Under the pieces are notes generated by a model. It did no database searches. It saw only the letters and a list, made by a program, of their open reading frames with translations, and was not told the origin of the DNA. From positions 5,208,001 through 5,272,000 of the forward strand of contig NZ_CP053452.2 of the NCBI RefSeq assembly GCF_013128195.2: 64,000 bases of DNA, written 5' to 3'. Below, in pieces: positions 9,639 through 26,383 of this stretch. The position numbers and the translations under genes were made by a program. The DNA comes from Frigoriglobus tundricola. GTDB lineage: Bacteria > Planctomycetota > Planctomycetia > Gemmatales > Gemmataceae. Within the stretch, counting starts at the first letter, position 1, and each line of letters opens with the position of its first letter.

Positions 9639-9849
9639 CGACCTTCCGATCCGGGCGGACTTCACTCCGCATCTTAAAGCTGTAGTTTATCACCTGCAAC
9701 GCAGATGACGATTACGCAGACGGTGCTACGGGGTTTGCGGTCCAGCATCCCGTCGTCTACCCTGGCCAAAGTTTTTAACTGTCCGCGTGCGGTGACTAAC
9801 GGACACCCTTGGGGCATCGATCACGTCGCCACCTTCGGGGAGCCAACCG

Positions 9850-12800
9850 ATGGCTAGAGGCAACGTCGTTGAGTGGGACGGAGCGAGCGGCAGCATCGGC
9901 GAGCGGGCCACCGCCGACCGCGTTCGGTTCGCCTCCCAATCCTTGCAAGTCCTCCTCCCTGGCGACGTGCATGTCGGGCTTGAGGTCGAGTTCGACCGGG
10001 TTGACGAGACGGGCAAACCTCCAACGGCCCGAAACGTCCGGCGACCCAGTGACCAGCCAAACCCGTTGAAGCCCGCTCTTAGTGGCCACGGATTTGATGT
10101 CGGTCTCTCCGGTCAGATCTCTCCCGGTGACATCGTCGCCGGCCTGGAGCCGGACGAACACGTCGAAATCACCAAGGTGACTCCCTTCGGCCCGCGCACA
10201 CTGGTCGAGGGTGTGGGAGTGACCACCCGTCGCGTCGTCCGTCGTCCGCTCGGGCCGGACGAACTCGGACGGGTGCAACGGGTCCGGGGCAGCGACCACA
10301 CCTACGACGGCGACCCCCGCGCTTTCCTGCTCGGCGTCGAGGCCCATCGGATCAAGACCGCGTACCAGTTCGACCCGCTGTTCGCGGTGAACTCGTCGGC
10401 TGTGGACGTGTTGCCGCACCAAGTCGAGGCCGTGTACCGCTACCTTCTCCCGCTGCCCCGCATCCGGTTTTTGCTCGCCGACGACACCGGAGCCGGGAAG
10501 ACGATCATGGCGGGCTTAATCCTCAAGGAACTTTTGTTTCGCGGCACCATCAGCAAGGTGCTGATCGTCGTCCCCGGTGGCCTCACCCGCCAGTGGGTAG
10601 ACGAGATGGCCGAGAAGTTCGGACTCAACTTCCGGCTGATTAACCGCGTCAGCTTCGAGGCCGAACCCGCCCAGTTCGCGCGCTCCGACGACGGCCTGTT
10701 CGTCACCAGTATCGACTTCATCGCCCGCCACGACGGGTGCCTGAACGCGGCCAGGGAGACGCAGTGGGACATGGTGATCGTGGACGAAGCGCATAAGCTC
10801 TCGGCCTACGAGTACGGCATCAAGGTGGATCGCTCGGAGCGGTATCAGGCGGTCGAGGCTCTGGCACCTCGCACCGATCACCTGTTGTTCCTCACGGCCA
10901 CGCCGCACCGGGGCCGGCGCGATACGTTCCGCCGGCTGTTGATGTTGCTGGACGAAGACCTGTTCCAAGAAGACGAACTGGTCACCCAACGGATCAATCG
11001 GTCGGCACCGGCTCAGGAGGGCGAGGCGTTCGAGAGCGAAGCCGCCATCGCACGGGCGAGGAACAGGTTCTTCCTGCGGCGACTCAAGGAGGAGATGGTC
11101 GGTTGGGACTCGCAACCGCTGTTCCGGCCCCGGTACGCCAAGACGGTGGGGTACGAACTCACGCCCGAGGAACTCGACCTGTACACCGCCGTGACGCAGT
11201 ACGTCCGGTCGCGACGGAAGGAAGCCAAGGCCAAGAAGAACCGCAACGTCGAACTGATCCTGATGGTCATGCAGCGACGGTTGGCGTCCTCGATCTACGC
11301 GATCACCTGCACCCTCCGCAACCGACTCGGAGCGTTGGACGAGGTGATCCGCATCCTGCGTGACCCGACCCCTTCCGCCGCCGAAAAGAAGCGGTTGCTC
11401 AAGGGCGACACCGACGACGTTCCGGGCAGCTACACCGAATATGAGGATCTGGACGAGCGCCAGCGGGACGCCGTCGAGCGAAAGGTGTTCCGACAGGTGT
11501 TGAGCGACGACCCCGAACAGGTCGAGAAGGAGCGGGGCGAAGTCGCCGAACTGCTCCGCATGGCCGAGGCTCTCAACAAGGCCAACCACAAGGAAGCGAA
11601 GTTCGCGGAACTCCTGAAGGTGTTGGACTCGTCCGACGTGATCCGCCGTGAGAACGAGAAGCTCGTCATCTTCACGGAACACAAGGACACGATGAACAAC
11701 CTGACCGAGCGACTCGTCCAACGCGGGTACACGGTCGCCAACATCCACGGCGGTATGGACGTAGACGCGCGCAAGGAGGCCCAGCGGATTTTCCGCACCG
11801 AGAAGAAGATCCTCGTCTGCACCGACGCGGCCGGCGAAGGGATCAACCTCCAGTTCTGTCGGTTCCTTTTGAACTGGGACATTCCGTGGAATCCGAACCG
11901 TCTTGAGCAGCGCATGGGCCGCGTCCACCGCTACGGCCAGACCGAGGTCGTGCAGGTGTTCAACCTCGTCGCCAGCAACACCCGCGAGGGGGCGGTCCTC
12001 GAACGCATCCTCTCGAAGCTCGACATCATGCGGGAGCAGTTGGGCGACGACCGCGTTTACGACGTAGTCGATGAACTGCTCGAACAGGTGCCGCTGCTGT
12101 CGCTGATCGAGAAGTCCATCGACGCGCCGAGCAAGGACACCGCCGACGAGGTCGCGAACGAGGCCGAGCGGCTGATGACCGACCCGGCGTTGAAGGCGAA
12201 GGCCGAGGAACTCGTCAGCCTCCAGAAGAAGAAGTCGCTGGCCAGCAAGCTGAACCTCGCCGACGCTCGCCGGCTGCGGGACGCCTCAGACGAGCGGCGG
12301 CTCCAGCCGTTGTTCATGCAGAATTTCTTCCTGGCTGCCTACCGCGAGGCCGGCGGCACCGTCCGCGCCGACGACCACTTCCCGGTGTACCACGTCGGCA
12401 CGGTGCCGTCGGCGGTCCTCGATGTCGCCCGCTCCGTGCGCTTGCCCGTCCGGGACAAGTACGACACGCCGTTCGTGTTCGACAAGACCCTCGTCTCTGT
12501 CGCCAGCAAGACCCGCGTCCCGGAACACACCAAGCTGCTCGGGTCCGGTCACCCACTGTTCGAGGCGTTGACCGAGTGGGCCATCCGCAAGGCCCGCGAC
12601 AGCTTCGCGCGGGGGGCCACCCTGTGCGACCCGAACATCGCGACCCCGCAGAAACTGTGGCTGGTCCGTTCGGCTATCGAGGACGGCCGGCAGGAGGCCC
12701 GCAAGCGGCTCGCTCACCAGCAAATGAGCGTCGTCCTGGCCGACCACCACGGCCTGCGATCTGTCTCGCCGGCCACGCTGCTCAACTTCACGGTCCCGGA

Positions 12801-13617
12801 CGGCCAGACGCCGAAGCCCGCCCTGGCCGACCGCTCCTCGGAAGAAATTCAGATGTGGGCGTTCGACGCGGTAACCGACCCGCAGTTGAAACAGGTCGAG
12901 GCCCACCGCCGCGCCGAGTGCGACCTGCGGCGGCAGTACCTCGACACGACGTTCACCGACCTGATCTCCGAACTCTCCATGAAAGTCGAGGGACTGCAAG
13001 CCGCGAGCCTATTCGGGAACGACGACCCGGAAGAACGGGACAAGCTCGAAAAGCGGCTCCGCGAACTGAAGATCCGCAAGCAGCGGCGGCTCGAAGAACT
13101 GGAACTCATGTTGCGGCTGACGGCCAACCTGCCGGACGTGGTCACGTCCGCGCTGGTGGTCCCGTCGCCGGTGGCGACGATGGACCCCGTCGAGCCGCCG
13201 GCGACCGGCGGCGGGTTCCCGATGCGGCGGGACGACGAAGTCGAGCGGATCGCGATGGAAGTGGTTATGAAGTACGAGCGGGCCAGGGGCTGGACCCCGT
13301 TCGACGTGTCGCAGGACGGCGAACACTACGACATCCGCAGCGAAGGCCCGGAGGCGGCGAAGCGGTTCATCGAGGTCAAAGGGCGTGCGCAAACCGGCGG
13401 CGTGGTGCTGACCGCCCCCGAGGTAGACAAGCTGCGTCAACTCGGCGACCGGGCCTTCCTGTACATCGTCACCTTCTGCAAAGGCGAGCGGCCGAAGTTG
13501 CGGATCATCCAAGACCCGATGGCCAACCTCCACCCCGCGATGTTGTACCGGCAGGTACAGTATTTCGTGGACGAGTCGGACTGGAAAAAGCACGGCGAGG
13601 ATCACGACTGTCAGTGA
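9850..13617 (+). CDS. SNF2-family helicase with N-terminal cold-shock-like domain and C-terminal DUF3883-like nuclease domain
   Basis: 1255 residues. Residues 1-70 (GNVVEWDGASGSI ... VLLPGDVHVG ... FDRVDETGKPPTARNVRR) follow the cold-shock OB-fold pattern and match the start of the next gene. The SF2/SNF2 motor shows LADDTGAGKT (about 210-219), DEAH (about 311), FLTATPHRG, then VIFTEHK, IHGG, TDAAGEGINLQ and RMGRVHRYGQ in the C-terminal lobe (about 600-760). Near 1130-1240 a DUF3883/PD-(D/E)xK-like end is seen: YDIRSEG ... RFIEVKGRA. It is therefore a candidate translocating nuclease. It is first in an operon with a methylase (85-base gap) and a DUF499 ATPase, a gene set I associate with restriction-like phage defence. 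DISARM's DrmA/DrmB are absent. Confidence 0.85.
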   Translation: MARGNVVEWDGASGSIGERATADRVRFASQSLQVLLPGDVHVGLEVEFDRVDETGKPPTARNVRRPSDQPNPLKPALSGHGFDVGLSGQISPGDIVAGLEPDEHVEITKVTPFGPRTLVEGVGVTTRRVVRRPLGPDELGRVQRVRGSDHTYDGDPRAFLLGVEAHRIKTAYQFDPLFAVNSSAVDVLPHQVEAVYRYLLPLPRIRFLLADDTGAGKTIMAGLILKELLFRGTISKVLIVVPGGLTRQWVDEMAEKFGLNFRLINRVSFEAEPAQFARSDDGLFVTSIDFIARHDGCLNAARETQWDMVIVDEAHKLSAYEYGIKVDRSERYQAVEALAPRTDHLLFLTATPHRGRRDTFRRLLMLLDEDLFQEDELVTQRINRSAPAQEGEAFESEAAIARARNRFFLRRLKEEMVGWDSQPLFRPRYAKTVGYELTPEELDLYTAVTQYVRSRRKEAKAKKNRNVELILMVMQRRLASSIYAITCTLRNRLGALDEVIRILRDPTPSAAEKKRLLKGDTDDVPGSYTEYEDLDERQRDAVERKVFRQVLSDDPEQVEKERGEVAELLRMAEALNKANHKEAKFAELLKVLDSSDVIRRENEKLVIFTEHKDTMNNLTERLVQRGYTVANIHGGMDVDARKEAQRIFRTEKKILVCTDAAGEGINLQFCRFLLNWDIPWNPNRLEQRMGRVHRYGQTEVVQVFNLVASNTREGAVLERILSKLDIMREQLGDDRVYDVVDELLEQVPLLSLIEKSIDAPSKDTADEVANEAERLMTDPALKAKAEELVSLQKKKSLASKLNLADARRLRDASDERRLQPLFMQNFFLAAYREAGGTVRADDHFPVYHVGTVPSAVLDVARSVRLPVRDKYDTPFVFDKTLVSVASKTRVPEHTKLLGSGHPLFEALTEWAIRKARDSFARGATLCDPNIATPQKLWLVRSAIEDGRQEARKRLAHQQMSVVLADHHGLRSVSPATLLNFTVPDGQTPKPALADRSSEEIQMWAFDAVTDPQLKQVEAHRRAECDLRRQYLDTTFTDLISELSMKVEGLQAASLFGNDDPEERDKLEKRLRELKIRKQRRLEELELMLRLTANLPDVVTSALVVPSPVATMDPVEPPATGGGFPMRRDDEVERIAMEVVMKYERARGWTPFDVSQDGEHYDIRSEGPEAAKRFIEVKGRAQTGGVVLTAPEVDKLRQLGDRAFLYIVTFCKGERPKLRIIQDPMANLHPAMLYRQVQYFVDESDWKKHGEDHDCQ

Positions 13618-13702
13618 CCACGCCGGCCACGTCCGATGAGTCCGGAAACGCGGTCGGGTGTGTACCCACAGCGGCGTAAAGGCAACTTCGAGGGACCGAC
13701 CG

Positions 13703-16700
13703 ATGGGCAAGGGTAAAGTCAGCAAGTGGGACGGCGCGAGCGGCCTCATCCGCGAGGAGGCGACCGGCGACCAACTCACGTTCACCGCCCAGTCGCTGCA
13801 CGTCCTGCTCCCCGGCGACGTGAAGGTCGGCACCGCCGTGGATTACGACCGCGTCGATGAGACGGGCAAGCCGTCGGCCGCACGCAACGTTCGCCGTCCG
13901 GGTGACCAGTCGCTTCCGCAGAAGCCCGCCGCTGTCGGACACGGGAGAGTGGTGCCGCGTCTGATCGAAGTCGCCCTGCCGATCCGCGAGATTTCGGCCG
14001 AGAGTGTCCGCGACAAGAGCCTGCGGCACGGCCACATCTCCACCCTGCACCTGTGGTTCGCCCGCCGGCCGTTGGCCGCGTCTCGGGCCGTGGTGTTCGC
14101 GTCCCTCGTCCCCGACCCCGATCACCCGGACTGCCCCCTCGCATTTCGTGAGGCGGTCGAGCGGCACCTGAAAACCCACGTTCCCGATGTGCTGAAGTCG
14201 TACCGTCGAGGGAAGGTCGTTCACATGGACCCCGACCCGTACCGGCCTTACGAAGGGCTGCCGGACACGCTCCGCAACCGGCTGATGATGTTCGTCGCCA
14301 AGTGGTCGCCGGAATGGGTGGCATTCGATCAGGGCAAGAGCGACAAGGAGCCGAAGTCCGAGAACCTTCTGGATGATCGCTCACTCGTGAAGTGGGAAAC
14401 GAGTGGACCGACGAGCAAGGTCGGCAGCAAGGAACTCCCGAACGAGGCGGGCCGGAAGATCCTGTGGATCGCCCGCGAACTCACGCGCATCGGCAACGGT
14501 GGCCAGATTCCGACCGTACTGGACCCGTTCTCGGGCGGTGGGGCGATCCCGTTGGAGGCCGGACGAGTTGGCGCTCAACCCTTCGCCAACGACTACAACC
14601 CGGTCGCCTACCTGATCCTCCGTGCGACCTGCGAGTTCCCGCAGAAGTACGGAAAACCGGGGCAGCGAGCCAAGACCGTCGCCAGCGGCAAGCCGCGCCT
14701 GTTCGGTGACGGCGAGATGGAGACGGTGCCGAACGTCCTCGCCCACGACGTGGAACACTACGCTCGGGAGATCCTGCGTCGGGCGAGGGAAAAGATCGGC
14801 CACCTGTTCCCGGTGGGCAAAGACAAGCATCCCGTGATCGGGTACTTGTGGGCGAGGACGATCCCCTGTGCGAACTGCCAGAAACGATTCCCCCTGATCC
14901 GGAGCCTGTACGTCTGCAACACCCGGAGTCGCAAGATCGCCTTGCAGTTGGTGAAGCAAGGGGACGTGATCAACATCGGGCTGCGTCGGGGTAAGGAGAT
15001 CACCACCACGGACGGGACGATGATTTCCGAAGGGCGGGGGAACGCCCGTTGCCCGCACTGTACTCAAGTGAACAGTGCAGCCAAGGACATCAAGCCACGG
15101 ACCCTCAGCGGAAAAATGTCCGAGCAGCTTCTGGTGGTGATCACGGACACGCCCGAGGGCCGAGGCTACCGATTGGCAGAGCCGGCCGACCTCGCAGCGA
15201 TTGCTGCCGCTGACGATCTGGCGAAGACGGCAGAACGGCCGAGCGAGCCGATGCCGGTGGAATACAGTCAAGCGTTCCCCGTCATTACCTGGGGTTTCAC
15301 CACCTGGGGGTCGTTGTTCACCAACCGCCAACTGGTCAGCATGCAAACACTCGCGGAGTGCGCCCGCCAAGTTCTAGGGGAAGTGAAGAAGGCGGTCGAT
15401 GCCGACTATTACCTCGCTCTCGCGACGTACCTCGGGCTGTGGTTCGGGCGGGCTTCGCAGCGCGGCAACAACCAAGCAACGTGGCAATCGGACGCCGAGA
15501 AGTTTGCCCACCCCTTCAGCATGCAACGCATCTCGCTCGCGTGGGATTTTGCGGAGGTGAACCCCTTCAACGATGCGTCCGGCGGGGCGGCGGGGAACAT
15601 CGAGTGGATCACCAAAGTCATTGAGCAGGAATCGAACGCCAACTCCCGTCCGGCAACGGTGAGCCGGGGCGACAGCACGTCCCTCTCGCTCAAGAGCGGC
15701 AGCATCGACGCCGTGGTAACTGATCCGCCGTACTTCGACGCCATCGCCTACGCCGACTTGTCGGACATGTTTTACATCTGGCAGAAGCGAGTCATCGGAG
15801 ACGACTTCCCCGAGAACTACGCGACCCCGCTGACGCCGAAAGTCGCTGAGGCGACCGCACTCAAGCACCGCTTCAAGGGGAGCATCGAAGACGCCGAAAA
15901 GCACTTTACCAGCAAGCTCTCGACCTGCCTCGGGGAGGCGAGGCGGATTTGTAAAGCCGATGGCGTCGTGAGCATCATGTTCGCCCACCAGTCCACAGAG
16001 GCGTGGACGGCCCTGATCCACTCCTTGTTCAACGCCGGACTGAACATCACGGCCACGTTCCCCATCGACACGGAGCGGAAGGCACGCTCCCGTGGCATGA
16101 GCAGTTCGGCACTGGCGTCATCCATCACCGTGGCCTGCCGCGCGAGATTGGCCGGCAGCCTCGGCTCGTACAAGGAAGTGCGGCGGGATATCGAGCGGGT
16201 CGTCAAAGAGAGCGTCCACCGCTTCTGGAACTACGGCTTCCGGGGGGCGGATCTAATCGTCGCGTGCTACGGGCCGGCAGTCGGCGAGTTCGGCCGGTAC
16301 GAGCGGGTCGAACGCGGCGACGGCACCCCGGTTAACGTCCCCGAACTCCTCCAACTGGTTCGCGAGGCAGCACTAAAGGCCATCGCCGGTGAGTTCACCG
16401 GCGACGAATTGTCCCGGCTGTACTTCGTGTGGGCCAACCTATACGGGGTGTCCGAGCAGCCGTGGGACGACGTGCGGACGGTCGTCCAGATCGGCGGCGA
16501 GAGCGAGAACGCGATGGACGTGGCCACCGGCCGGGGGCTGTTCGTGGTGGATGCGACGAACTCCCGGTTGGCCGTCCTCGCCGACCGTCACGAGCGTCCT
16601 CACTTAGGGGCCGACAAAATCGACCCCCTCATCGACCAGTTGCACCGGGCCATGTTGTTCTGGAAGAACGAGGACCGCACCAAACTGGTTCATTACCTGC

Positions 16701-16897
16701 ACGGCCACGAACTGGGCGACCACTCCGGGTTCTGGCGACTCGCCCAGGCTCTGTTCGAGGTGCTGCCCCACGACATCGAGGACTGGAAGCTGGTGAGCGC
16801 CCTCCTCGGCGAGCGAACCACCCTCCGAACGGAAATCAAGCGGCGTGAAGCGGCCTTATCCGGAGGAGCCGGACTCTTTGACGGTCAGGACGAGTAG
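13703..16897 (+). CDS. DUF1156-type adenine-specific DNA methyltransferase with N-terminal cold-shock-like domain
   Basis: 1064 residues from ATG 13703 (an in-frame start at 13658 adds 15). Residues 1-70 (GKVSKWDGASGLI ... VLLPGDVKVG ... YDRVDETGKPSAARNVRR) repeat the N-terminal domain of the preceding helicase. DUF1156 follows (RLIEVALPIREISAES ... HISTLHLWFARRPLAASRAV). SAM-binding motif I is LDPFSGGGAIPLEA (about 272), with NDYNPVAYLIL after it. Catalytic motif IV is DPPY (about 674). Cys pairs CANC (about 392) and CPHC (about 451) make a Zn ribbon. It should methylate adenine-N6 to protect self DNA in a restriction-like system. The DUF499 gene follows 59 bases later. Confidence 0.88.
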   Translation: MGKGKVSKWDGASGLIREEATGDQLTFTAQSLHVLLPGDVKVGTAVDYDRVDETGKPSAARNVRRPGDQSLPQKPAAVGHGRVVPRLIEVALPIREISAESVRDKSLRHGHISTLHLWFARRPLAASRAVVFASLVPDPDHPDCPLAFREAVERHLKTHVPDVLKSYRRGKVVHMDPDPYRPYEGLPDTLRNRLMMFVAKWSPEWVAFDQGKSDKEPKSENLLDDRSLVKWETSGPTSKVGSKELPNEAGRKILWIARELTRIGNGGQIPTVLDPFSGGGAIPLEAGRVGAQPFANDYNPVAYLILRATCEFPQKYGKPGQRAKTVASGKPRLFGDGEMETVPNVLAHDVEHYAREILRRAREKIGHLFPVGKDKHPVIGYLWARTIPCANCQKRFPLIRSLYVCNTRSRKIALQLVKQGDVINIGLRRGKEITTTDGTMISEGRGNARCPHCTQVNSAAKDIKPRTLSGKMSEQLLVVITDTPEGRGYRLAEPADLAAIAAADDLAKTAERPSEPMPVEYSQAFPVITWGFTTWGSLFTNRQLVSMQTLAECARQVLGEVKKAVDADYYLALATYLGLWFGRASQRGNNQATWQSDAEKFAHPFSMQRISLAWDFAEVNPFNDASGGAAGNIEWITKVIEQESNANSRPATVSRGDSTSLSLKSGSIDAVVTDPPYFDAIAYADLSDMFYIWQKRVIGDDFPENYATPLTPKVAEATALKHRFKGSIEDAEKHFTSKLSTCLGEARRICKADGVVSIMFAHQSTEAWTALIHSLFNAGLNITATFPIDTERKARSRGMSSSALASSITVACRARLAGSLGSYKEVRRDIERVVKESVHRFWNYGFRGADLIVACYGPAVGEFGRYERVERGDGTPVNVPELLQLVREAALKAIAGEFTGDELSRLYFVWANLYGVSEQPWDDVRTVVQIGGESENAMDVATGRGLFVVDATNSRLAVLADRHERPHLGADKIDPLIDQLHRAMLFWKNEDRTKLVHYLHGHELGDHSGFWRLAQALFEVLPHDIEDWKLVSALLGERTTLRTEIKRREAALSGGAGLFDGQDE

Positions 16898-16956
16898 GCG
16901 TATCGCCGACCGGATTTCTCGACAAACCTTCCAAGGACTGACAAGAGTAAAACAAA

Positions 16957-19782
16957 ATGTCCGCCGACATTCCGCAGTGGTTCACCGTCGCCCTCCCGCA
17001 CTCGGACATCCGTGAGGGGCGGCTGGACGAGTCCGTTTTCGCCGCTAATATCTGGGCGGTGCGGCAGAACAACGCCCCGACCACCTACCTCGACACCGAA
17101 CAGTTCTTCGGCAAGACCTACGTCACCGGCGGCTTGAGCAAGGTGCTGAGGAAGGTCGGGCAGGCTCTGTGCGGCACCACCGAGGCCAGCGACCGCATCA
17201 TCAGCCTCCAGACTGCATTCGGCGGCGGTAAGACGCACACTCAGGTGGCGCTGTGGCACCTCGCCCGACACCCGGACGTGCTGCGAAAATCGGCCGCGTG
17301 CAAAGAGGTCCGTGACGTTCTCGGCGATCTGATACCGAAGAAACCGTGCGGCGTGGCGGTGTTCACGAACCAGACCTGTGATGCCACCCAAGGCCGCGAG
17401 ACGCCCGAGGGCGTGCGGACGCGGACGGTCTGGGGCGAACTGGCCCTGCAATTGGGCGGCGTCGAGCTTTACAAGAAGATCGAGGCGAACGACCAGAACC
17501 GGGCCGTCCCGCAGGGTCTGTTCACCGAGATCCTCAAGAGAGCCGCCCCGTGCTTGATCCTACTTGACGAGATGGCTGACTACTGCGTCGGCGCGATGGC
17601 GGTGTCGGTCGGGCAAGGCACGCTCGCCGATCAGACGATCAGCTTCGTGCAGCAGTTGACCGAGGCCGCGTCTCTCGTGCCGGGCGCGGTGGTCGTTGCC
17701 ACCTTGCCGGCCAGCCACTTGGAAGTGGCCAGCAGCGATAAGGGCCAGGAGATCCTGAGCCGGCTCGAAAAGCGGTTCGGCCGGATGTCGTCGGACCTGA
17801 AGCCGGTCGCCGATGAGGAGATCAACGAGGTGGTTCGCCGCCGGCTGTTCGAGAAAATCGGCGACCTCACCATCCAGGCCCAGGTCGCGGATGCGTACAT
17901 GAAGTTGTACGCCGCGCACAAGAACGAGGTGCCGCCCGAAGCGTCGAAGGCCGGGTTCCGCGACCGGCTCCTGGCCGCATACCCGTTCCACCCGAGTCTG
18001 GTCGATACGTTCTACCTGCGGTGGGGCAGCCACAACGACTTCCAACGGACCCGTGGCGTGCTGCGGCTGTTGGCCAGCATCGTCGGGGATCTCTGGCAGC
18101 AGCGGGAAAAGACAAAGCAAAGCCAACCACTCATTCAACCGTGCCACGTCCGGTGGACGATTGACGCCCTGCGCGCCAGTTTGACACGCCTTTGGGGGGC
18201 GACTTACGACAGCGTCGTCGCCGCCGACGTGATCGGCGACAAGGCCAACGCCGTGGCCTTGGACGGCGAGCGGGGGCGCGACTATGCGGACGAGCGGGTG
18301 TCGCAGGGCGTTGCGTCGGCGGTGCTTCTCGGGTCTTTCGGCGGTCAAGGCGACCGGGCCGGGTTCTCCAGCAAGGAGGTCCGCTTATGCACGGGCAGGC
18401 CGGACCTGAACTGGGGTTACACGGACGGGGCGTTGCTCGCACTCGAAGAGAAGGCGTTCTACCTGCACAACGCCGCCGCCGGCAGCCAGGGCAAGCGGTA
18501 CTGGTTCGGCACCAAGCCGACGCTCACCAAGTTGCTGGTGCAGTATCGCGGCAGCTTCTCGGGCCAGGAGTTTGACGCCGAGATCATTGAGGCGTTGCAG
18601 GCCCAGGTGAAGACGCTGAAGACCGATCCGGCGACTTGGAAGGTGTTGGTCAATCCACAGGCCGATCTTCCCGAGCAGAAGGTGCTGACCCTGCTCGTCA
18701 TGCCGCCGGACTGCGTGTGGTCCGACGAATCGTTGCTCGCAGGTATGGGTGGCTCGAAGGAACGCATCCTCGAACTGAGTCAGAAGTGCGGGTCGAAGGA
18801 CCGACTGTATCGGAACACGTTGTTGTTCTTGTTGCCAAACCAGCGGGGGCTTACCCGGCTCCGCAAGGAGCTTCGCGAGGTCGCCTCCCTCGAAGCCGTG
18901 AAGCGGGACTACACCAGCCAACTGGACCCCGAACAACTCGAAGAACTCAAGCAGAAGTTGGTCAAGCAAAAGGACACGGTGAGCGAGGTCATGGGCGGCG
19001 CGTTCCCGCACATCGCCCGCGTCGATGGCCAGGAGGTGGCCGTCTCGAACATGACGGAGATCGGTCCCAACCTGACCGACCACTTGTTGGCCGCGTGGCG
19101 GCAGGTCACGGACGAAGAAGAGTGGGTGCTGCGTAAGGTCGGGCAGGTGACGCTTCAGAAGACCGGCATGGTTCCCACCGAGAGCGGCATCCGGGTGCGG
19201 GACGCGGTCGAGGCGTTCCTGCGGTACACGGACAAGCCGATGGTGGCGACATCGGATTCGGTCGTGCAGGGCTTGGCCCAGGCGTGCAAAGACCGCGTCA
19301 TCGGCATCGGGCGTGGCGTGTCGCCCGAAAAGCTCCAGACGCGGCGATGCGGCGATTACGTTGCACTGGATCGCAGTGAAGAAGGCGTCTGGATCATCCC
19401 GCCGTTCACCGAGCAGCCAACCGAGACGACCGGCGGCACCCCGAGCGGCGGTGCCGCGATCTCGTCGGACGGCGGTGCCGCGATCTCGTCGGACGGCCCC
19501 GTGACGGTCGTCGGCGACACCGGTGGTTCCACGACCACAACGGCCACGCCCAAGAAGCTCAAGGGCGTGACCATCGCCGGAACGATTCCGTTGGAGTCGT
19601 GGACCGAACTGTTCCGGTGCTTCCTCAACCCGGCGGCAAAGCTCGGCTTGAAGAGTCTGCAACTGGGCATCGAGTTCAAACTCGTGGCCCAAGACGGCCA
19701 ACCCCTCGACCCGGACAACCCGACCGTGAAGGCGATGAAGGAGGCCGCGAACCAATTCGGGCTGCGGTTCGAGGAGCCGTGA
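16957..19782 (+). CDS. DUF499 (COG1483-type) AAA+ ATPase
   Basis: 941 residues. The N-terminus (PHSDIREGRLDESVFAANIWAV) is the usual DUF499 start. Walker A is AFGGGKTH (about 87-94), Walker B is LILLDEMADYC (about 200-210), and EILSRLEKRFGR with an arginine-rich region follows. The C-terminus has a low-complexity linker with a 24-base tandem duplication (GGAAISSDG twice) before a final small domain. I recall DUF499 ATPases being found beside DUF1156 methylases and SNF2 helicases in predicted defence islands of bacteria and archaea. Here it is third in that operon and closes it, with a strong terminator 66 bases downstream. Presumed role: ATP-driven sensing or assembly of the complex. Mechanism unknown. 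Confidence 0.85.
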   Translation: MSADIPQWFTVALPHSDIREGRLDESVFAANIWAVRQNNAPTTYLDTEQFFGKTYVTGGLSKVLRKVGQALCGTTEASDRIISLQTAFGGGKTHTQVALWHLARHPDVLRKSAACKEVRDVLGDLIPKKPCGVAVFTNQTCDATQGRETPEGVRTRTVWGELALQLGGVELYKKIEANDQNRAVPQGLFTEILKRAAPCLILLDEMADYCVGAMAVSVGQGTLADQTISFVQQLTEAASLVPGAVVVATLPASHLEVASSDKGQEILSRLEKRFGRMSSDLKPVADEEINEVVRRRLFEKIGDLTIQAQVADAYMKLYAAHKNEVPPEASKAGFRDRLLAAYPFHPSLVDTFYLRWGSHNDFQRTRGVLRLLASIVGDLWQQREKTKQSQPLIQPCHVRWTIDALRASLTRLWGATYDSVVAADVIGDKANAVALDGERGRDYADERVSQGVASAVLLGSFGGQGDRAGFSSKEVRLCTGRPDLNWGYTDGALLALEEKAFYLHNAAAGSQGKRYWFGTKPTLTKLLVQYRGSFSGQEFDAEIIEALQAQVKTLKTDPATWKVLVNPQADLPEQKVLTLLVMPPDCVWSDESLLAGMGGSKERILELSQKCGSKDRLYRNTLLFLLPNQRGLTRLRKELREVASLEAVKRDYTSQLDPEQLEELKQKLVKQKDTVSEVMGGAFPHIARVDGQEVAVSNMTEIGPNLTDHLLAAWRQVTDEEEWVLRKVGQVTLQKTGMVPTESGIRVRDAVEAFLRYTDKPMVATSDSVVQGLAQACKDRVIGIGRGVSPEKLQTRRCGDYVALDRSEEGVWIIPPFTEQPTETTGGTPSGGAAISSDGGAAISSDGPVTVVGDTGGSTTTTATPKKLKGVTIAGTIPLESWTELFRCFLNPAAKLGLKSLQLGIEFKLVAQDGQPLDPDNPTVKAMKEAANQFGLRFEEP

Positions 19783-20046: not shown

Positions 20047-20838
20047 ATGTATGAATCCGAAGAAATACTGATGAAAGAATTACAGTTCTCGCTTTACGAA
20101 GTCTTCGGGTATCTGCTTCCCGGCACCGCCCTTTGCGCCGGCTTGGGGTTGGTGTTCTGGGCGTTGTACTTCCCACGGCCCGCGATTCTGTTCGATCTGA
20201 AGACGGCTGAAGTGTGGGTGACGTTCATTACCTTCGGATACGTTGCCGGTCACGTTGCCCAAGCAATCGGCAACAAGATCGTAAAGCAGTTCACTTCGGC
20301 CGAAGAGAAGATCGTTACGGACTCGAACGCCTTTCCCGCCGAACTGGTGAAAGCGTGCCGGGAGAAGGTTGCGAAGATGCTCACCACCGACTCGCAACCG
20401 GGGCTAGTTCTCGCGGACGGTAGCAACGCAGCCGAACCCGCGAAGGATTTGCCCCCTCTTTGGTTGTACCGCTTCTGCGACGATGCCGTGTTGCGTTCGG
20501 GGAAACTCGGCGAGCGCGAAGTGTACATCTACCGCGAAGGGTTCTACCGGGGAACGTTCGTCGGCTTCGTCGTGCTTACGGTCGGCTGGGTCGCGTTCGC
20601 GTTGCGGTTGTGGTTCGGTGCGGAGAACGGAACGGCACGGATCGGAACGGCAGAAATGACCGGCGCGCGTGTGGCCTACTTCGCGGTTCTCTCGGCGGTC
20701 GCAGCCCGCTTCCTCTGGGTTCGGTACTGGCGTTTTGCCGAATACCGCGTGACACAAGCACTTCTCGGATTCCTGACGATCAAGGACAAGGCCAGCGACA
20801 AGACGGAAGACAAGGTGGTTAAGAACGAAACCAACTGA
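20047..20838 (+). CDS. multi-pass membrane protein paired with MBL hydrolase
   Basis: 263 residues from ATG 20047 (AAGG just before it); ATG 20071 is an alternative. Four membrane segments are visible: about 19-42 (VFGYLLPGTALCAGLGLVFW), 56-75, 168-190 (TFVGFVVLTVGWVAFALRLW) and 205-225. A soluble loop of about 90 residues lies between the second and third. The tail is highly charged. No family recognised. The MBL-fold gene follows after 14 bases, so the two are co-transcribed. In a defence island such a pair suggests a membrane effector with an enzymatic partner, but this is inference. Confidence 0.7.
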   Translation: MYESEEILMKELQFSLYEVFGYLLPGTALCAGLGLVFWALYFPRPAILFDLKTAEVWVTFITFGYVAGHVAQAIGNKIVKQFTSAEEKIVTDSNAFPAELVKACREKVAKMLTTDSQPGLVLADGSNAAEPAKDLPPLWLYRFCDDAVLRSGKLGEREVYIYREGFYRGTFVGFVVLTVGWVAFALRLWFGAENGTARIGTAEMTGARVAYFAVLSAVAARFLWVRYWRFAEYRVTQALLGFLTIKDKASDKTEDKVVKNETN

Positions 20839-20852
20839 AAGGAGCATCGGCC

Positions 20853-21749
20853 ATGCTGCAAGTGATGATCTGGGACGTTGACCACGGTAGCGCCGCGTAC
20901 ATCAAGACGCCCACGGGCAAACACATCGCCATTGACCTCGGCGTCGGCGACATGTCCGAAGGGGGGAAAGAGTTCAGCCCGCTTCGGCACCTGCGGAAGC
21001 ACTACGGGGTTGAACGCCTCGACAAACTCGTCATCACTCACCCGCACCGCGACCACCTCGACGACATCGCCAACGTCTCGCTGCTCAATCCTCGATTGCT
21101 TCGTGCGGAACGCGGCATCAAGGACGAGTTCATCAACAAGGGCAACAAGCCGAACGACAAAGACATTCTCGGCGCTTACCGCTCGCTCCTCGAAGAGTAC
21201 AAGACTTCGGTGGGAGGCACGCCCGCGCCCGCAGTAGACTGGGGCTGTACCATTCAGCACTTTCACCCGGTGTACGACGGCCCGAACCTGAACAACTACA
21301 GCGTCGTCACCGTCATCAGCTACGCGGGATCGAAGATCGTGATTCCCGGCGACAACGAAGGGGGATCGTGGGAAAGCCTTCTCAAACAATCGGCCTTCGT
21401 GTCAGCGATCAAGGGAACTGACATCTTCGTTGCCTCGCACCACGGACGCGAAAGTGGCTTCTACGGCGAACTGTTCGATCACTTCAAGCCGAAGCTTGTG
21501 ATTGTTTCCGACACGAACCACGGCAGCACGAGCGTTACGGGGAACTACACTTACCACGCGGAAGGTTGGCAAGTCGATCACGGGCGGAAAGGTCGGGTAG
21601 ACGCAGACCCGCGATACACGCTCACTACGCGGAACGATGGCAACATCCTGATCAAGTGCGGGACGAACAGCACGACCGGGCGGAACTATCTCGCAGTGTC
21701 CACGGAACTCGGCGCACCGCAACAAAAAGCGGCCAGCTATCGGTTTTGA
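20853..21749 (+). CDS. MBL-fold hydrolase (ComEC/Rec2-like)
   Basis: 298 residues, with AAAGGAG about 10 bases before the ATG. WDVDHGSAAYIKTPTGKHIAIDLG and ITHPHRDHLDD give the metallo-beta-lactamase H-x-H-x-D-H metal site, followed by VIPGDN and VASHHGRESGF, the order found in the ComEC/Rec2 hydrolase domain. It could cleave DNA or RNA or a nucleotide signal. Coupling with the upstream membrane protein (14-base gap), inside an island and downstream of a methylase/helicase system, suggests a second, separate defence module. Confidence 0.8.
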   Translation: MLQVMIWDVDHGSAAYIKTPTGKHIAIDLGVGDMSEGGKEFSPLRHLRKHYGVERLDKLVITHPHRDHLDDIANVSLLNPRLLRAERGIKDEFINKGNKPNDKDILGAYRSLLEEYKTSVGGTPAPAVDWGCTIQHFHPVYDGPNLNNYSVVTVISYAGSKIVIPGDNEGGSWESLLKQSAFVSAIKGTDIFVASHHGRESGFYGELFDHFKPKLVIVSDTNHGSTSVTGNYTYHAEGWQVDHGRKGRVDADPRYTLTTRNDGNILIKCGTNSTTGRNYLAVSTELGAPQQKAASYRF

Positions 21750-23823: not shown

Positions 23824-24210
23824 TCACTTCCGCGATGCGATGACCGATACGACCGCGGCGCGGAATTCAGTCACCGCGAACCGCAGCGTCTCGATGTCGC
23901 ACGTCAGCACCGCGCTCATCACCATGTCCGCCGCTGCCCGGATGACCGGGTGCAGTCCGGATACCCCCGACCGCTCCAAGTACTCGTCCGCCTCAAACAA
24001 GTGTCGAATCATCTCCTCACGATGGCAGCCCCAACTGGGATGGGCCTCGGCGAGCGGTTCACACCTTGTCCCAGCAGGCGGGGAAAAGGGGGATAAGGGA
24101 GAAAAGCGTATCTCAGTGAGAGACTTCTCCGCCTTATCCCCCTTTTCCCCGCCCGGCGCTCGGGTGTTGGCGAGGTGCTGCCGGGCGATAGTGAGTGGGT
24201 CACGCTGCAT
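23824..24210 (-). CDS. hypothetical protein containing a palindromic insert
   Basis: 128 residues from ATG 24210, overlapping the primase gene's stop by 11 bases, so translation is probably coupled. The N-terminus (MQRDPLTIARQHLANT) and C-terminus (EEMIRHLFEADEYLERS ... AAADMVMSAVLTCDIETLRFAV) are helical and normal-looking. In between lies a low-complexity stretch coded by a large perfect inverted repeat (24077-24153) that keeps the frame open. Downstream is the integrase. Function unknown; it could be a small DNA-binding or recombination directionality factor. Confidence 0.5.
   Translation of the reverse strand: MQRDPLTIARQHLANTRAPGGEKGDKAEKSLTEIRFSPLSPFSPPAGTRCEPLAEAHPSWGCHREEMIRHLFEADEYLERSGVSGLHPVIRAAADMVMSAVLTCDIETLRFAVTEFRAAVVSVIASRK
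24077..24153. repeat. perfect 22-bp inverted repeat inside a coding frame
   Basis: The left arm 24077-24098 (begins GGCGGGGAAAAGGGGGAT) and right arm 24132-24153 are exact reverse complements around a 33-base spacer. The spacer contains a smaller inverted repeat (TCTCA/TGAGA). The arms are A/G- and C/T-pure tracts, unlike the surrounding sequence. It resembles a palindromic mini-element that has landed in a gene without breaking the frame. Confidence 0.85.
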
Positions 24211-26383
24211 GATGTGCCCTTGCCGGACCTGCAAACCATACCTCGGCCGGTCGGCCGGTCGTGGTTCGCTGCGCGCTGTGTGCCAGCCCCGCCGTGAGCA
24301 ACAACCCCAGCGCCGACCCGAACCGAGCGGCCGGGTGGTGCTTGCCGGCCATGTCGTGGAGTTCGTTCCGGGTCAATCCGTTGCTCCCACCGGCGCGGAG
24401 GAGCCGCAACAACTCGTCGGCCAGAGGATTGCCGGTCGCGTCCCCGAAGATGTGGGTCACCGACTGTTCTGAGTATTCCCACACTGCCAGCGCCGCAGTG
24501 AGGTGGACCACCTGGATTGCGGGCGAGCGGTCGAGGACCGCATAGATGAGTGCCAGCCGCAGGACGTGCGCCTCGGCCCGTCCTGTCAGCGCGCCCGCCA
24601 GTCCGTACCGGTCGCGGCTCAACACGGGGTACACTTCGCACCAGAGTGCTCTCGCCAGTGGGTCGATTGGCATTTCGCCTGCCCCGCGCACGAACTCGAG
24701 GACGGTGGCGAGTTCGCCCGTTATGGCATTCATCTGCACGGGGTCCGGGGTGCCACTGAACGGAAGGAACTTGGACCGCTTTACCAAGAACCACATGTAC
24801 CGGTTGCCGAAGCCGTTCGCCGATTCCGTTGCCGTCAGGTAGCGCTGCAGCTCTTCCCGCGTGATGTGTCCGATCATGCTGACGTGCGCCCCGGTGGCTT
24901 TGGCCGGCGAGTTCTTCGTGAGCGTGCGAAGGTTTCCGCCATCCCACGCCTGCCGGATCACCGCGGACAGCGTGTTGCCGGTGCGCTCGGTCTGTTTGAG
25001 GACGTTCGCGAACTCCGGCTCCTGGATCAGCACCCGCTTGTCCGGTTCGCCCTCGTCCACGACGACGGTTTCGTACCGGACGGGTTGGCCGCGCTCCTTG
25101 ATCCGCTCGCGACCCTCCACGGGGTCGCGAACGGCCCAGATGAGCCCTTCGCCGGACGACAGCCCGCCGAGCACTCGGTTCTCGGCCCATTGCTGTGCGG
25201 CTTGGGTCAAGACGTCCCGGACCCGTGACCACGACGTGCCCTTGCGAGCTTTGGCGGACTGACCCACCAGTACGGCGTACTCGTTGGCGTGGTGCCGGCT
25301 ACCGTCGGCGAGCGCGTAGACCGTGCGCCCGATCGCGTTGCCGATGCCGAGGAGGAACTGCACCAGAAGCGCCGCCGCGTCTGCTTCGGTGTGGGGCTCG
25401 ATGGCCCGGACGAAGCGACCGGCCAATCCGTGGTACGCTTCTACAGCAAGAGGGGCGGGCCAGTCCGGCGCGGGTGGTGTGGACGGTTCGGCGGCTGTAT
25501 ACACATTGGTCCCCGACGCTGCCGATCGCTCGATTCGCTCGCGTAATGCGACCCGGTCTTCGTCAGTGACGCACTCGGCGACCGCATCGGCAATGTCGTA
25601 CCCGGCGGGTAGGTCTTCGCGCCCGTATGCCGCGTGTGGATCGAGCAGTTTGGCCGCCGTCGGCGGGCGGAGGGAGGCGAGCTTCTTCGTCACGATGTCG
25701 GCGTACTTCCCACCGGCCGCGTCGTTGTCGGGGAGAAGCCAAACTTCCTTCCCCACCAGAGAGGACCAGTCGGACTTACCCGCCGCTTGCGAGCCGCCGG
25801 CCGATGTCGTGGCGGTGAAGCCGAGCGCGCGCGCCGCGTCCACGCACTTCTCGCCCTCGACCACGAGAACGCGGTCCGCCTTCGGTAACTCGGGCAGGCC
25901 GTAGAGTGGCCGCGGGTCGGGCATCGCCTCGATCCGCCAGCCGTCCGGGTGTCGCGAGACGGGGCGGATGTCCTTCTTGCCGTCGTCGAGATCCCAGCGG
26001 ATTACAACGCCAACAGGTTCGCCCGCGGTGTTGAGGTACGTCCACAGCCCGGCCCGACGGCCGCGCTGGGTTTCCAACTCCTCGACGGCCGCGTTCGCCG
26101 TGGCGAACACCTTTCCGTTCGTTTTGCCGTTGCGGTGCGCGCCGAATGTCACGGTCGGCTCATTTCGCTCCGGCATCAGGTCGCGGAGCGTCAACCCCAC
26201 CGCGGCGCACACGGCTTCGGTGGTGCAACCCGCGTGGCACTTGACCAGCGCTCGACCGTCGTCACCTTCGGAAACGCTCAGGCTGGGCTTTCGGTCTTCG
26301 TGCGCTGGGCAGAGCGCCGACCAACCGCTTGTGGTATTCTTCGTGCCCTTGAGCTTCGACAGGAGCAGTTCGACGGGGGTCAT
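24200..26383 (-). CDS. primase-helicase-like replication protein (CHC2 Zn finger, Toprim, DUF3987-like)
   Basis: 727 residues. An N-terminal CHC2-type zinc finger is seen as C25-x2-H28 and C49-H-x2-C53 (WSALCPAHEDRKPSLSV ... VKCHAGC). A Toprim domain follows: VLVVEGEKCVDAARALG (about 168-184) with LLPDNDAAG. The second half has the DUF3987-type layout (LLGIGNAIGRTVYALADG, HHANEYAVLVGQSAKARKGTSW) with a P-loop-like GQSAKARKGTS. It probably starts replication of element B after excision. Its ATG overlaps the stop of the upstream Toprim gene (ATGA), showing an operon. Confidence 0.85.
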   Translation of the reverse strand: MTPVELLLSKLKGTKNTTSGWSALCPAHEDRKPSLSVSEGDDGRALVKCHAGCTTEAVCAAVGLTLRDLMPERNEPTVTFGAHRNGKTNGKVFATANAAVEELETQRGRRAGLWTYLNTAGEPVGVVIRWDLDDGKKDIRPVSRHPDGWRIEAMPDPRPLYGLPELPKADRVLVVEGEKCVDAARALGFTATTSAGGSQAAGKSDWSSLVGKEVWLLPDNDAAGGKYADIVTKKLASLRPPTAAKLLDPHAAYGREDLPAGYDIADAVAECVTDEDRVALRERIERSAASGTNVYTAAEPSTPPAPDWPAPLAVEAYHGLAGRFVRAIEPHTEADAAALLVQFLLGIGNAIGRTVYALADGSRHHANEYAVLVGQSAKARKGTSWSRVRDVLTQAAQQWAENRVLGGLSSGEGLIWAVRDPVEGRERIKERGQPVRYETVVVDEGEPDKRVLIQEPEFANVLKQTERTGNTLSAVIRQAWDGGNLRTLTKNSPAKATGAHVSMIGHITREELQRYLTATESANGFGNRYMWFLVKRSKFLPFSGTPDPVQMNAITGELATVLEFVRGAGEMPIDPLARALWCEVYPVLSRDRYGLAGALTGRAEAHVLRLALIYAVLDRSPAIQVVHLTAALAVWEYSEQSVTHIFGDATGNPLADELLRLLRAGGSNGLTRNELHDMAGKHHPAARFGSALGLLLTAGLAHSAQRTTTGRPAEVWFAGPARAHHAA

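What the first reader, a model, noticed from the sequence alone, without database searches (positions are those of the whole stretch)
9850..16897. The same cold-shock-like domain caps both the helicase and the methylase of a putative defence operon
Residues 1-70 of the SNF2 helicase and of the DUF1156 methylase are over half identical (shared WDGASG, VLLPGDV, VDETGKP, ARNVRRP). They follow the cold-shock OB-fold pattern: Gly-x-Val-x-x-Trp at the start, a Gly-rich turn, Gly-Asp-Val, and a C-terminal Asn-Val-Arg. Two neighbouring enzymes of otherwise different type carry the same N-terminal tag, which suggests a common address: binding the same single-stranded nucleic acid, the same partner, or each other. 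I know of no described defence system with this design.
Basis: partly seen in the sequence, partly recalled or inferred. Interest (0 to 1): 0.85.

Follow-up and report, generated by a model that had tools for sequence, protein, structure and literature searches.

The report
CRISPR-type cold-shock caps on Hma enzymes
In one unnamed bacterium, the helicase and the DNA methylase of a known anti-phage system both begin with the same small domain, a worn-down cold-shock domain whose nearest relatives cap an RNA-targeting CRISPR protein in related bacteria; this suggests a shared docking piece that can move between unrelated defence systems.

Summary
Residues 1-75 of the helicase (HmaA, 9850-13617) and of the methylase (HmaB; likely start ATG 13703) align without a gap at 65% identity. 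The operon itself is known: an Hma system (Type-1 BREX-related). The two tags are the unusual part. They are cold-shock-domain (CSD) derived, but convincingly so only through intermediates: their nearest relatives cap Cmr6-Cmr1-like proteins of type III-B CRISPR systems in two genomes of the same family and, more weakly, one of the same class. As a group those caps match CSDs.

Other Hma operons examined lack the tag: 0 of 31 HmaB genes and 0 of 5 HmaA proteins. In the closest relative (HmaB 71%, HmaC 83%) the HmaA-HmaB junction is tight; here about 342 bp carrying the HmaB tag sit in it, and the ribosome-binding stretch seems to have been copied too.

Residues that contact nucleic acid in CSDs are mostly gone from both tags, while most of the domain is under constraint. 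I therefore favour a shared protein-docking cap over single-strand binding, but the statistical support is borderline and no partner is known. Structure prediction was too weak to show the fold. New variant of a known kind.

The parts
9850..13617 (+). hmaA: SNF2/RapA-like helicase with C-terminal NOV_C domain
   Evidence: PADLOC HmaA E 1.3e-194 over residues 90-1209; Pfam SNF2-rel_dom, Helicase_C, NOV_C
9850..10074 (+). HmaA tag, residues 1-75 (similarity to the HmaB tag runs to residue 81)
9826..9849 (+). 24 nt before the HmaA start that align, anchored at the ATG, with those before HmaB
   Evidence: score 18, reached by 1 of 3000 shuffles and 5 of 3000 pairs of SD-like ATG upstreams; an unanchored test was not significant
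13703..16897 (+). hmaB: DUF1156 DNA methylase (DPPY motif visible in the translation); ATG 13703 preferred to GTG 13658
   Evidence: PADLOC HmaB E 6.5e-123; Pfam DUF1156 E 3.6e-21
13703..13927 (+). HmaB tag, residues 1-75
13613..13954 (+). 342 bp present here but absent at the tight HmaA/HmaB junction of the closest relative G412; holds the HmaA stop codon, spacer, ribosome-binding stretch and HmaB tag with linker
   Evidence: junction aligned by eye
13679..13702 (+). 24 nt before the HmaB start, similar to those before HmaA
16957..19782 (+). hmaC: DUF499 ATPase, no tag
   Evidence: PADLOC HmaC E 9.5e-137; Pfam DUF499 E 1.1e-26

Best explanation
This is an Hma (Type-1 BREX-related) anti-phage operon. 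In its lineage the N-termini of the helicase and of the methylase acquired the same small domain, a diverged cold-shock domain of the kind that caps Cmr6-Cmr1-like proteins of type III-B CRISPR systems in related bacteria. One copy entered the operon and was duplicated together with its ribosome-binding stretch, so that both the restriction arm (HmaA) and the modification arm (HmaB) carry it (inferred). The contact residues of a cold-shock domain are mostly lost in both tags, while the tag as a whole is under purifying selection. The most likely role is therefore a shared docking cap: it holds helicase and methylase in one assembly, by pairing with each other or by binding one partner such as HmaC, rather than gripping single-stranded nucleic acid. 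Shown: shared homologous tag, CSD ancestry through the caps, absence from the other Hma genes examined, an extra segment at the junction, constraint on the protein. Inferred: direction of transfer, order of the two gains, docking role and partner.
For: Hma identity: PADLOC HmaA, HmaB, HmaC in order. CSD ancestry: PF00313 is the only Pfam match of either isolated tag (E 0.043 and 0.11); PF00313 over the whole own genome in six frames gives only two hits at E<=10, the two tags (E 1.97 and 2.72); tag profile against 39 CSDs, hhalign score 22.2 against a maximum of 13.2 in 300 column shuffles. Caps: the tag profile finds G450 (E 3.2e-10) and G455 (E 9.3e-8) among 95 same-family genomes and G274 (E 3.8e-5) among 392 of the phylum; all three lie at the start of proteins with two RAMP stretches next to Cas10/Cmr2 genes. 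HmaA tag against G450 cap: 45% over 65 aa. Profile of 2 tags + 3 caps against PDB sequences: 35 of 39 hits at E<=10 are cold-shock, Y-box or UNR proteins (best E 1.2e-5), one is 9arw_H 'CSD domain-containing protein Cmr6' (E 0.088), and the last three are unrelated. hhalign: tags against caps 98.3%, caps against CSDs 98.0%. Tree: tags are sisters (100/98), G450 cap next (96/90). Junction. Copied upstream stretch. Constraint. Contact face: only one aromatic (W) remains of the mapped contact positions.
Against: No tagged Hma was found in a second genome. AlphaFold models are poor (pLDDT 53.8, 46.9) and Foldseek of the first gave no match at E<=0.001. The tags score 14.1 and 12.8 bits against a PF00313 cut-off of 27; hhalign of the tags alone against CSDs gives only 17%; the two-tag profile finds nothing in the PDB at E<=10. 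The tree has 70 columns and long branches. dS between the tags (1.14) is about that of the G412 orthologues (1.03-1.20), so a duplication after that split is not shown. G412's HmaA start lies beyond its contig end. The contact-face contrast depends on one position: 2 of 8 identical against 43 of 60 elsewhere gives p 0.015, but with the Y42 position, which one search left out and where both tags have P, it is 3 of 9 against 42 of 59, p 0.052. The contact positions are recalled, not taken from a call. No partner was identified; HmaC showed no extra Pfam domain.
Confidence: 0.4

Rival explanations
1. The tags still bind single-stranded nucleic acid, such as a displaced strand or phage RNA, and bring both enzymes to the same substrate, as the caps on Cmr6 may do at the target-RNA end of the Cmr complex.
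For: Homology to cold-shock domains and Cmr6 caps. One W and several arginines are shared by both tags. [quoted passage not shown] An OB fold in BrxL of BREX contacts DNA (PMC12839542 passage). The conservation contrast against this reading is only borderline.
Against: Of 10 contact positions mapped from CspA only the W at F12 keeps an aromatic in the tags; F20 is S/L, F31 is R/T, H33 is A/T. Predicted net charge is -2.4 and -0.4.
Confidence: 0.22
2. The tag is mainly an expression leader: copying a ribosome-binding stretch with a well-translated 5' coding stretch gave HmaB its own start in place of the overlapping start seen in G412, and the tag protein has little function.
For: The upstream 24 nt seem to be copied with the tag, and the overlapping ATG of G412's HmaB reads ACG here.
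Against: Amino-acid identity above the neutral expectation in 2000 of 2000 simulations and dN/dS about 0.22 argue for selection on the protein. It does not explain why the same domain caps Cmr6.
Confidence: 0.15
3. The tags were gained separately from an outside pool of such caps (for example two Cmr6-like donors), not by duplication within the operon.
For: dS between the tags is as large as between orthologues in G412.
Against: The tags are closer to each other (66%) than the HmaA tag is to any of the three caps (31-42%), are sisters in the tree, and share linker and upstream stretch.
Confidence: 0.12

Closest known systems
Hma system (PADLOC) / Type-1 DUF499-centred BREX-related (BR) system
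   Same: Gene set and order: SNF2 helicase, DUF1156 methylase, DUF499 ATPase (PMC8565338 passages; PMC12839542 section 29).
   Different: The published description gives the helicase an N-terminal Tudor domain and the methylase an N-terminal DUF1156; 'cold shock' and 'CSD' do not occur in the main text of PMC12839542. Here both enzymes carry an extra CSD-derived cap in front.
CSD-capped Cmr6(-Cmr1) of type III-B CRISPR systems (G450, G455, G274; PDB 9arw_H 'CSD domain-containing protein Cmr6')
   Same: Homologous cap at the protein start.
   Different: There the cap sits on a RAMP protein; here on a helicase and a methylase. The caps keep more contact residues. The own genome has no RAMP match at E<=0.01.
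CoCoNuT systems (Type IV restriction)
   Same: CSD-like OB folds at the N-terminus of CnuB and within CnuC in some types, so two proteins of one system can carry them (PMC11090510 passages).
   Different: McrBC-based with coiled coils. Known to me from passages only; no sequence comparison was made.

Membership tests
Hma / Type-1 BR system | HmaA SNF2 helicase, HmaB DUF1156 methylase and HmaC DUF499 ATPase as adjacent co-directional genes | tested here: met
   PADLOC E 1.3e-194, 6.5e-123, 9.5e-137; 9850-19782 all on + strand
Hma / Type-1 BR system | C-terminal active nuclease on the helicase (79% of taxa in PMC12839542) | tested here: inconclusive
   NOV_C E 1.7e-16 at 1131-1220; that NOV_C is nuclease-like is recalled, activity not testable
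Hma / Type-1 BR system | Anti-phage activity | not testable with these tools
   needs experiment
Cold-shock domain (PF00313) | Score above Pfam gathering cut-off (27 bits) | tested here: not met
   14.1 and 12.8 bits
Cold-shock domain (PF00313) | Homology through intermediates | tested here: met
   tags-caps 98.3%, caps-CSDs 98.0% in hhalign; of the three caps G274 passes the Pfam cut-off (31.2 bits), G455 does not (19.9), G450 has no match at E<=0.05
Cold-shock domain (PF00313) | RNP1/RNP2 aromatic residues (recalled from CspA/CspB) | tested here: not met
Cold-shock domain (PF00313) | OB fold | tested here: inconclusive
   best model pLDDT 53.8 with strands 5-10, 15-20, 24-30, 43-49; second model 46.9; Foldseek no match at E<=0.001
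Cmr6 (type III-B CRISPR) | RAMP domain | tested here: not met
   Pfam finds no RAMP in HmaA or HmaB at E<=10; no RAMP match in own genome at E<=0.01
CoCoNuT | McrB-type GTPase with coiled coils | tested here: not met
   no McrB-like Pfam hit among the operon proteins

The most novel reading that the evidence does not exclude
A CSD-derived cap acts as a portable docking module shared by unrelated defence systems in these bacteria: the same kind of piece that sits on the Cmr1/Cmr6 end of a type III-B CRISPR complex has been fitted to both the restriction and the modification enzyme of an Hma system, tying them to one assembly or to one common host partner.
Probability: 0.2. Interest if true: 0.8.

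Novelty: new variant of a known kind. Interest (0 to 1): 0.5.

Why it matters
How the helicase, methylase and ATPase of Hma/BR systems find each other was not settled in the passages I read. Two enzymes of one such system wearing the same cap give a direct handle: remove or swap the cap and ask whether assembly, methylation or protection fails. The link to Cmr6 caps would show a domain shared between an RM-like system and an RNA-targeting CRISPR system.

Tried and rejected
Three weak phylum hits of the single tag sequence (G044, G058, G097) lie in loci whose ORFs are unrelated. The one genome-contig hit (L041, a Sumerlaeota MAG) is a 14-residue match inside an unrelated protein. Viral contigs gave nothing for the tag pair, for tags + one cap, or for HmaB; plasmids only E>=3 for the tag; phages nothing for the G450 cap. 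Rhodococcus HmaB matches on plasmids that started within the tag region show a stop codon and no tag upstream of DUF1156. Of the 19 loci rescored, only L077 (G274) was clearly CSD-like; 14 printed matches, nine of them covering under 60% of the profile, looked unrelated to CSDs by eye apart from L077, and five matches under 15 bits were not printed (list). The TM and MBL genes downstream had no match in 14 loci compared, some of which end soon after hmaC. Foldseek on the poor model was not used as evidence.

How limits bear on the negatives: the phylum profile search scored at most 14 candidates per genome, the family search up to 61; the genome-contig scan used two short peptide patterns; metagenomes could not be scanned. 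The 31 HmaB genes are my own reduction of 43 ORFs (loci that repeat one gene counted once); ORFs whose alignment did not reach the N-terminus were dropped and not counted.

Full report
WHAT IS THERE. The operon at 9850-19782 is an Hma system: HmaA helicase, HmaB methylase and HmaC ATPase match their PADLOC models in order, and Pfam gives SNF2-rel/Helicase_C/NOV_C, DUF1156 and DUF499. Hma was proposed with PADLOC (PMC8565338, passages) and is treated as the Type-1 DUF499-centred BREX-related system in PMC12839542 (section 29), which also says that the phage-defence role of the helicase was confirmed in another study (passage).

THE TAGS ARE REAL. HmaA 1-75 and HmaB 1-75 (from ATG 13703) share 49 of 75 residues without a gap, score 253 against at most 55 in 2000 shuffles. 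No other place in the own genome matches at E<=0.01. dN 0.25 and dS 1.14, and 0 of 2000 neutral simulations reaching the observed identity, point to selection on the protein.

THEY ARE COLD-SHOCK-DERIVED. Pfam's only match to either isolated tag is PF00313, below its cut-off (E 0.043 and 0.11). The same model run over the own genome hits only the two tags at E<=10 (E 1.97 and 2.72), and nothing over its cut-off. The tag profile against 39 CSDs (38 domains from phylum loci plus CspA) gave an hhalign score of 22.2, while 300 column shuffles had a mean of 3.2 and a maximum of 13.2. Against this: the hhalign probability is only 17%, and the two-tag profile alone finds nothing in the PDB at E<=10.

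THE LINK IS CMR6. The two-tag profile over 392 phylum genomes gives one convincing relative, G274 (E 3.8e-5 per genome, so about 0.015 over the set). Over 95 same-family genomes it gives G450 (3.2e-10) and G455 (9.3e-8). All three caps lie at the start of proteins with two RAMP stretches beside Cas10/Cmr2 genes (Cmr3 also identified in two of them): Cmr6-Cmr1-like proteins of type III-B CRISPR. In G455 the cap's first Met is residue 64 of the longest frame, so its start is assumed. The G450 protein matches Cmr6 and Cmr1 structures in its two halves. The HmaA tag and G450 cap are 45% identical over 65 residues. The caps grade into CSDs: PF00313 E 2e-7 for G274, 7e-4 for G455, none at 0.05 for G450. 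Against PDB sequences a profile of tags plus caps hits 39 sequences at E<=10: 35 cold-shock, Y-box or UNR proteins (best 2lxj, E 1.2e-5), 9arw_H 'CSD domain-containing protein Cmr6' (E 0.088) and three unrelated ones at the bottom; the G450 protein itself matches 9arw_H at 3.8e-21. A capped Cmr6 has thus been solved. Searches of the held library for a paper on it (terms Cmr6 with cold shock, with CSD, and 9ARW) returned none that is about it. The cap is not general on Cmr6: of 20 plasmid records with a Cmr6 match I read five, and 0 of 5 had a CSD by Pfam at E<=0.01.

HOW THE HMA OPERON GOT THEM. Of the other HmaB genes whose N-terminus I could read, 0 of 31 distinct genes (43 ORFs) carry a tag over 12 bits; for HmaA 0 of 5, and five more HmaA N-termini printed show none by eye. 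The closest operon, G412 (same family; HmaA 84% over the part present, HmaB 71%, HmaC 83%), has HmaB starting MTVPRLIEV, its ATG overlapping the end of HmaA. Here that ATG reads ACG, and 342 bp (13613-13954) stand between the matching flanks (aligned by eye). G061 and G240 lack tags on both genes; for G161 only HmaB could be read. A gain in this lineage is the simplest reading; loss elsewhere is not excluded. The 24 nt before both starts also align when anchored at the ATG (1 of 3000 shuffles, 5 of 3000 SD-ATG pairs), although an unanchored test was not significant. dS of tags and orthologues is alike (1.14 against 1.03-1.20), so the duplication cannot be placed after the split from G412 by that measure.

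WHAT IT DOES. I mapped ten positions that I recall as nucleic-acid contacts in CspA/CspB. The 39 canonical CSDs keep nine of them nearly unchanged (the F34 position varies); the caps keep a W at F12, F at F31 and an aromatic or His at F20; the tags keep only the W. Between the two tags, 2 of 8 contact positions are identical against 43 of 60 others (p 0.015); that test left out the gapped F18 and the Y42 position, and with Y42 it becomes 3 of 9 against 42 of 59 (p 0.052). So the loss of contact aromatics is clear, and the claim that what is conserved lies off the binding face is only borderline. Together this favours docking over strand binding, but no partner is shown.

VERDICT. A real and unusual variant of Hma, with an unexpected tie to type III-B CRISPR. 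It rests on one tagged Hma operon, hence the moderate score.

Noticed in passing
L145 and L146 (genomes G458, G461, same family as the window): HmaB of two other Hma loci carries a different N-terminal fusion, a NADAR domain (PF08719, E 1e-25 and 4.5e-26). The word NADAR does not occur in the main text of PMC12839542. The HmaB N-terminus looks like a place where domains are gained.
   Followed up: partly
window 20047-20838 and 20853-21749: Downstream of hmaC: a protein weakly like Csx27 (E 4.3e-4) and a metallo-beta-lactamase-fold protein matching PDC-M48B (E 3.7e-86). No similar genes in the 14 loci compared, some of which end soon after hmaC.
   Followed up: partly
window 24200-26383 (-): 727-aa protein with a weak DnaG-type zinc-ribbon match (E 0.0025) and a weak match to a PADLOC DnaG-like RT-associated model (E 2.7e-5).
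   Followed up: no
L101, L102 (genomes G258, G106): HmaA in these two starts with what reads like a helix-turn-helix DNA-binding domain before the helicase (by eye), another N-terminal addition to HmaA.
   Followed up: no
whole genome G000: No match over the cut-off to the cold-shock domain model in a 9.86 Mb genome, while 82 of 119 phylum genomes searched have one.
   Followed up: no
L105 (genome G061): HmaB lies in two separate ORFs, so it is broken or the assembly has an error.
   Followed up: no
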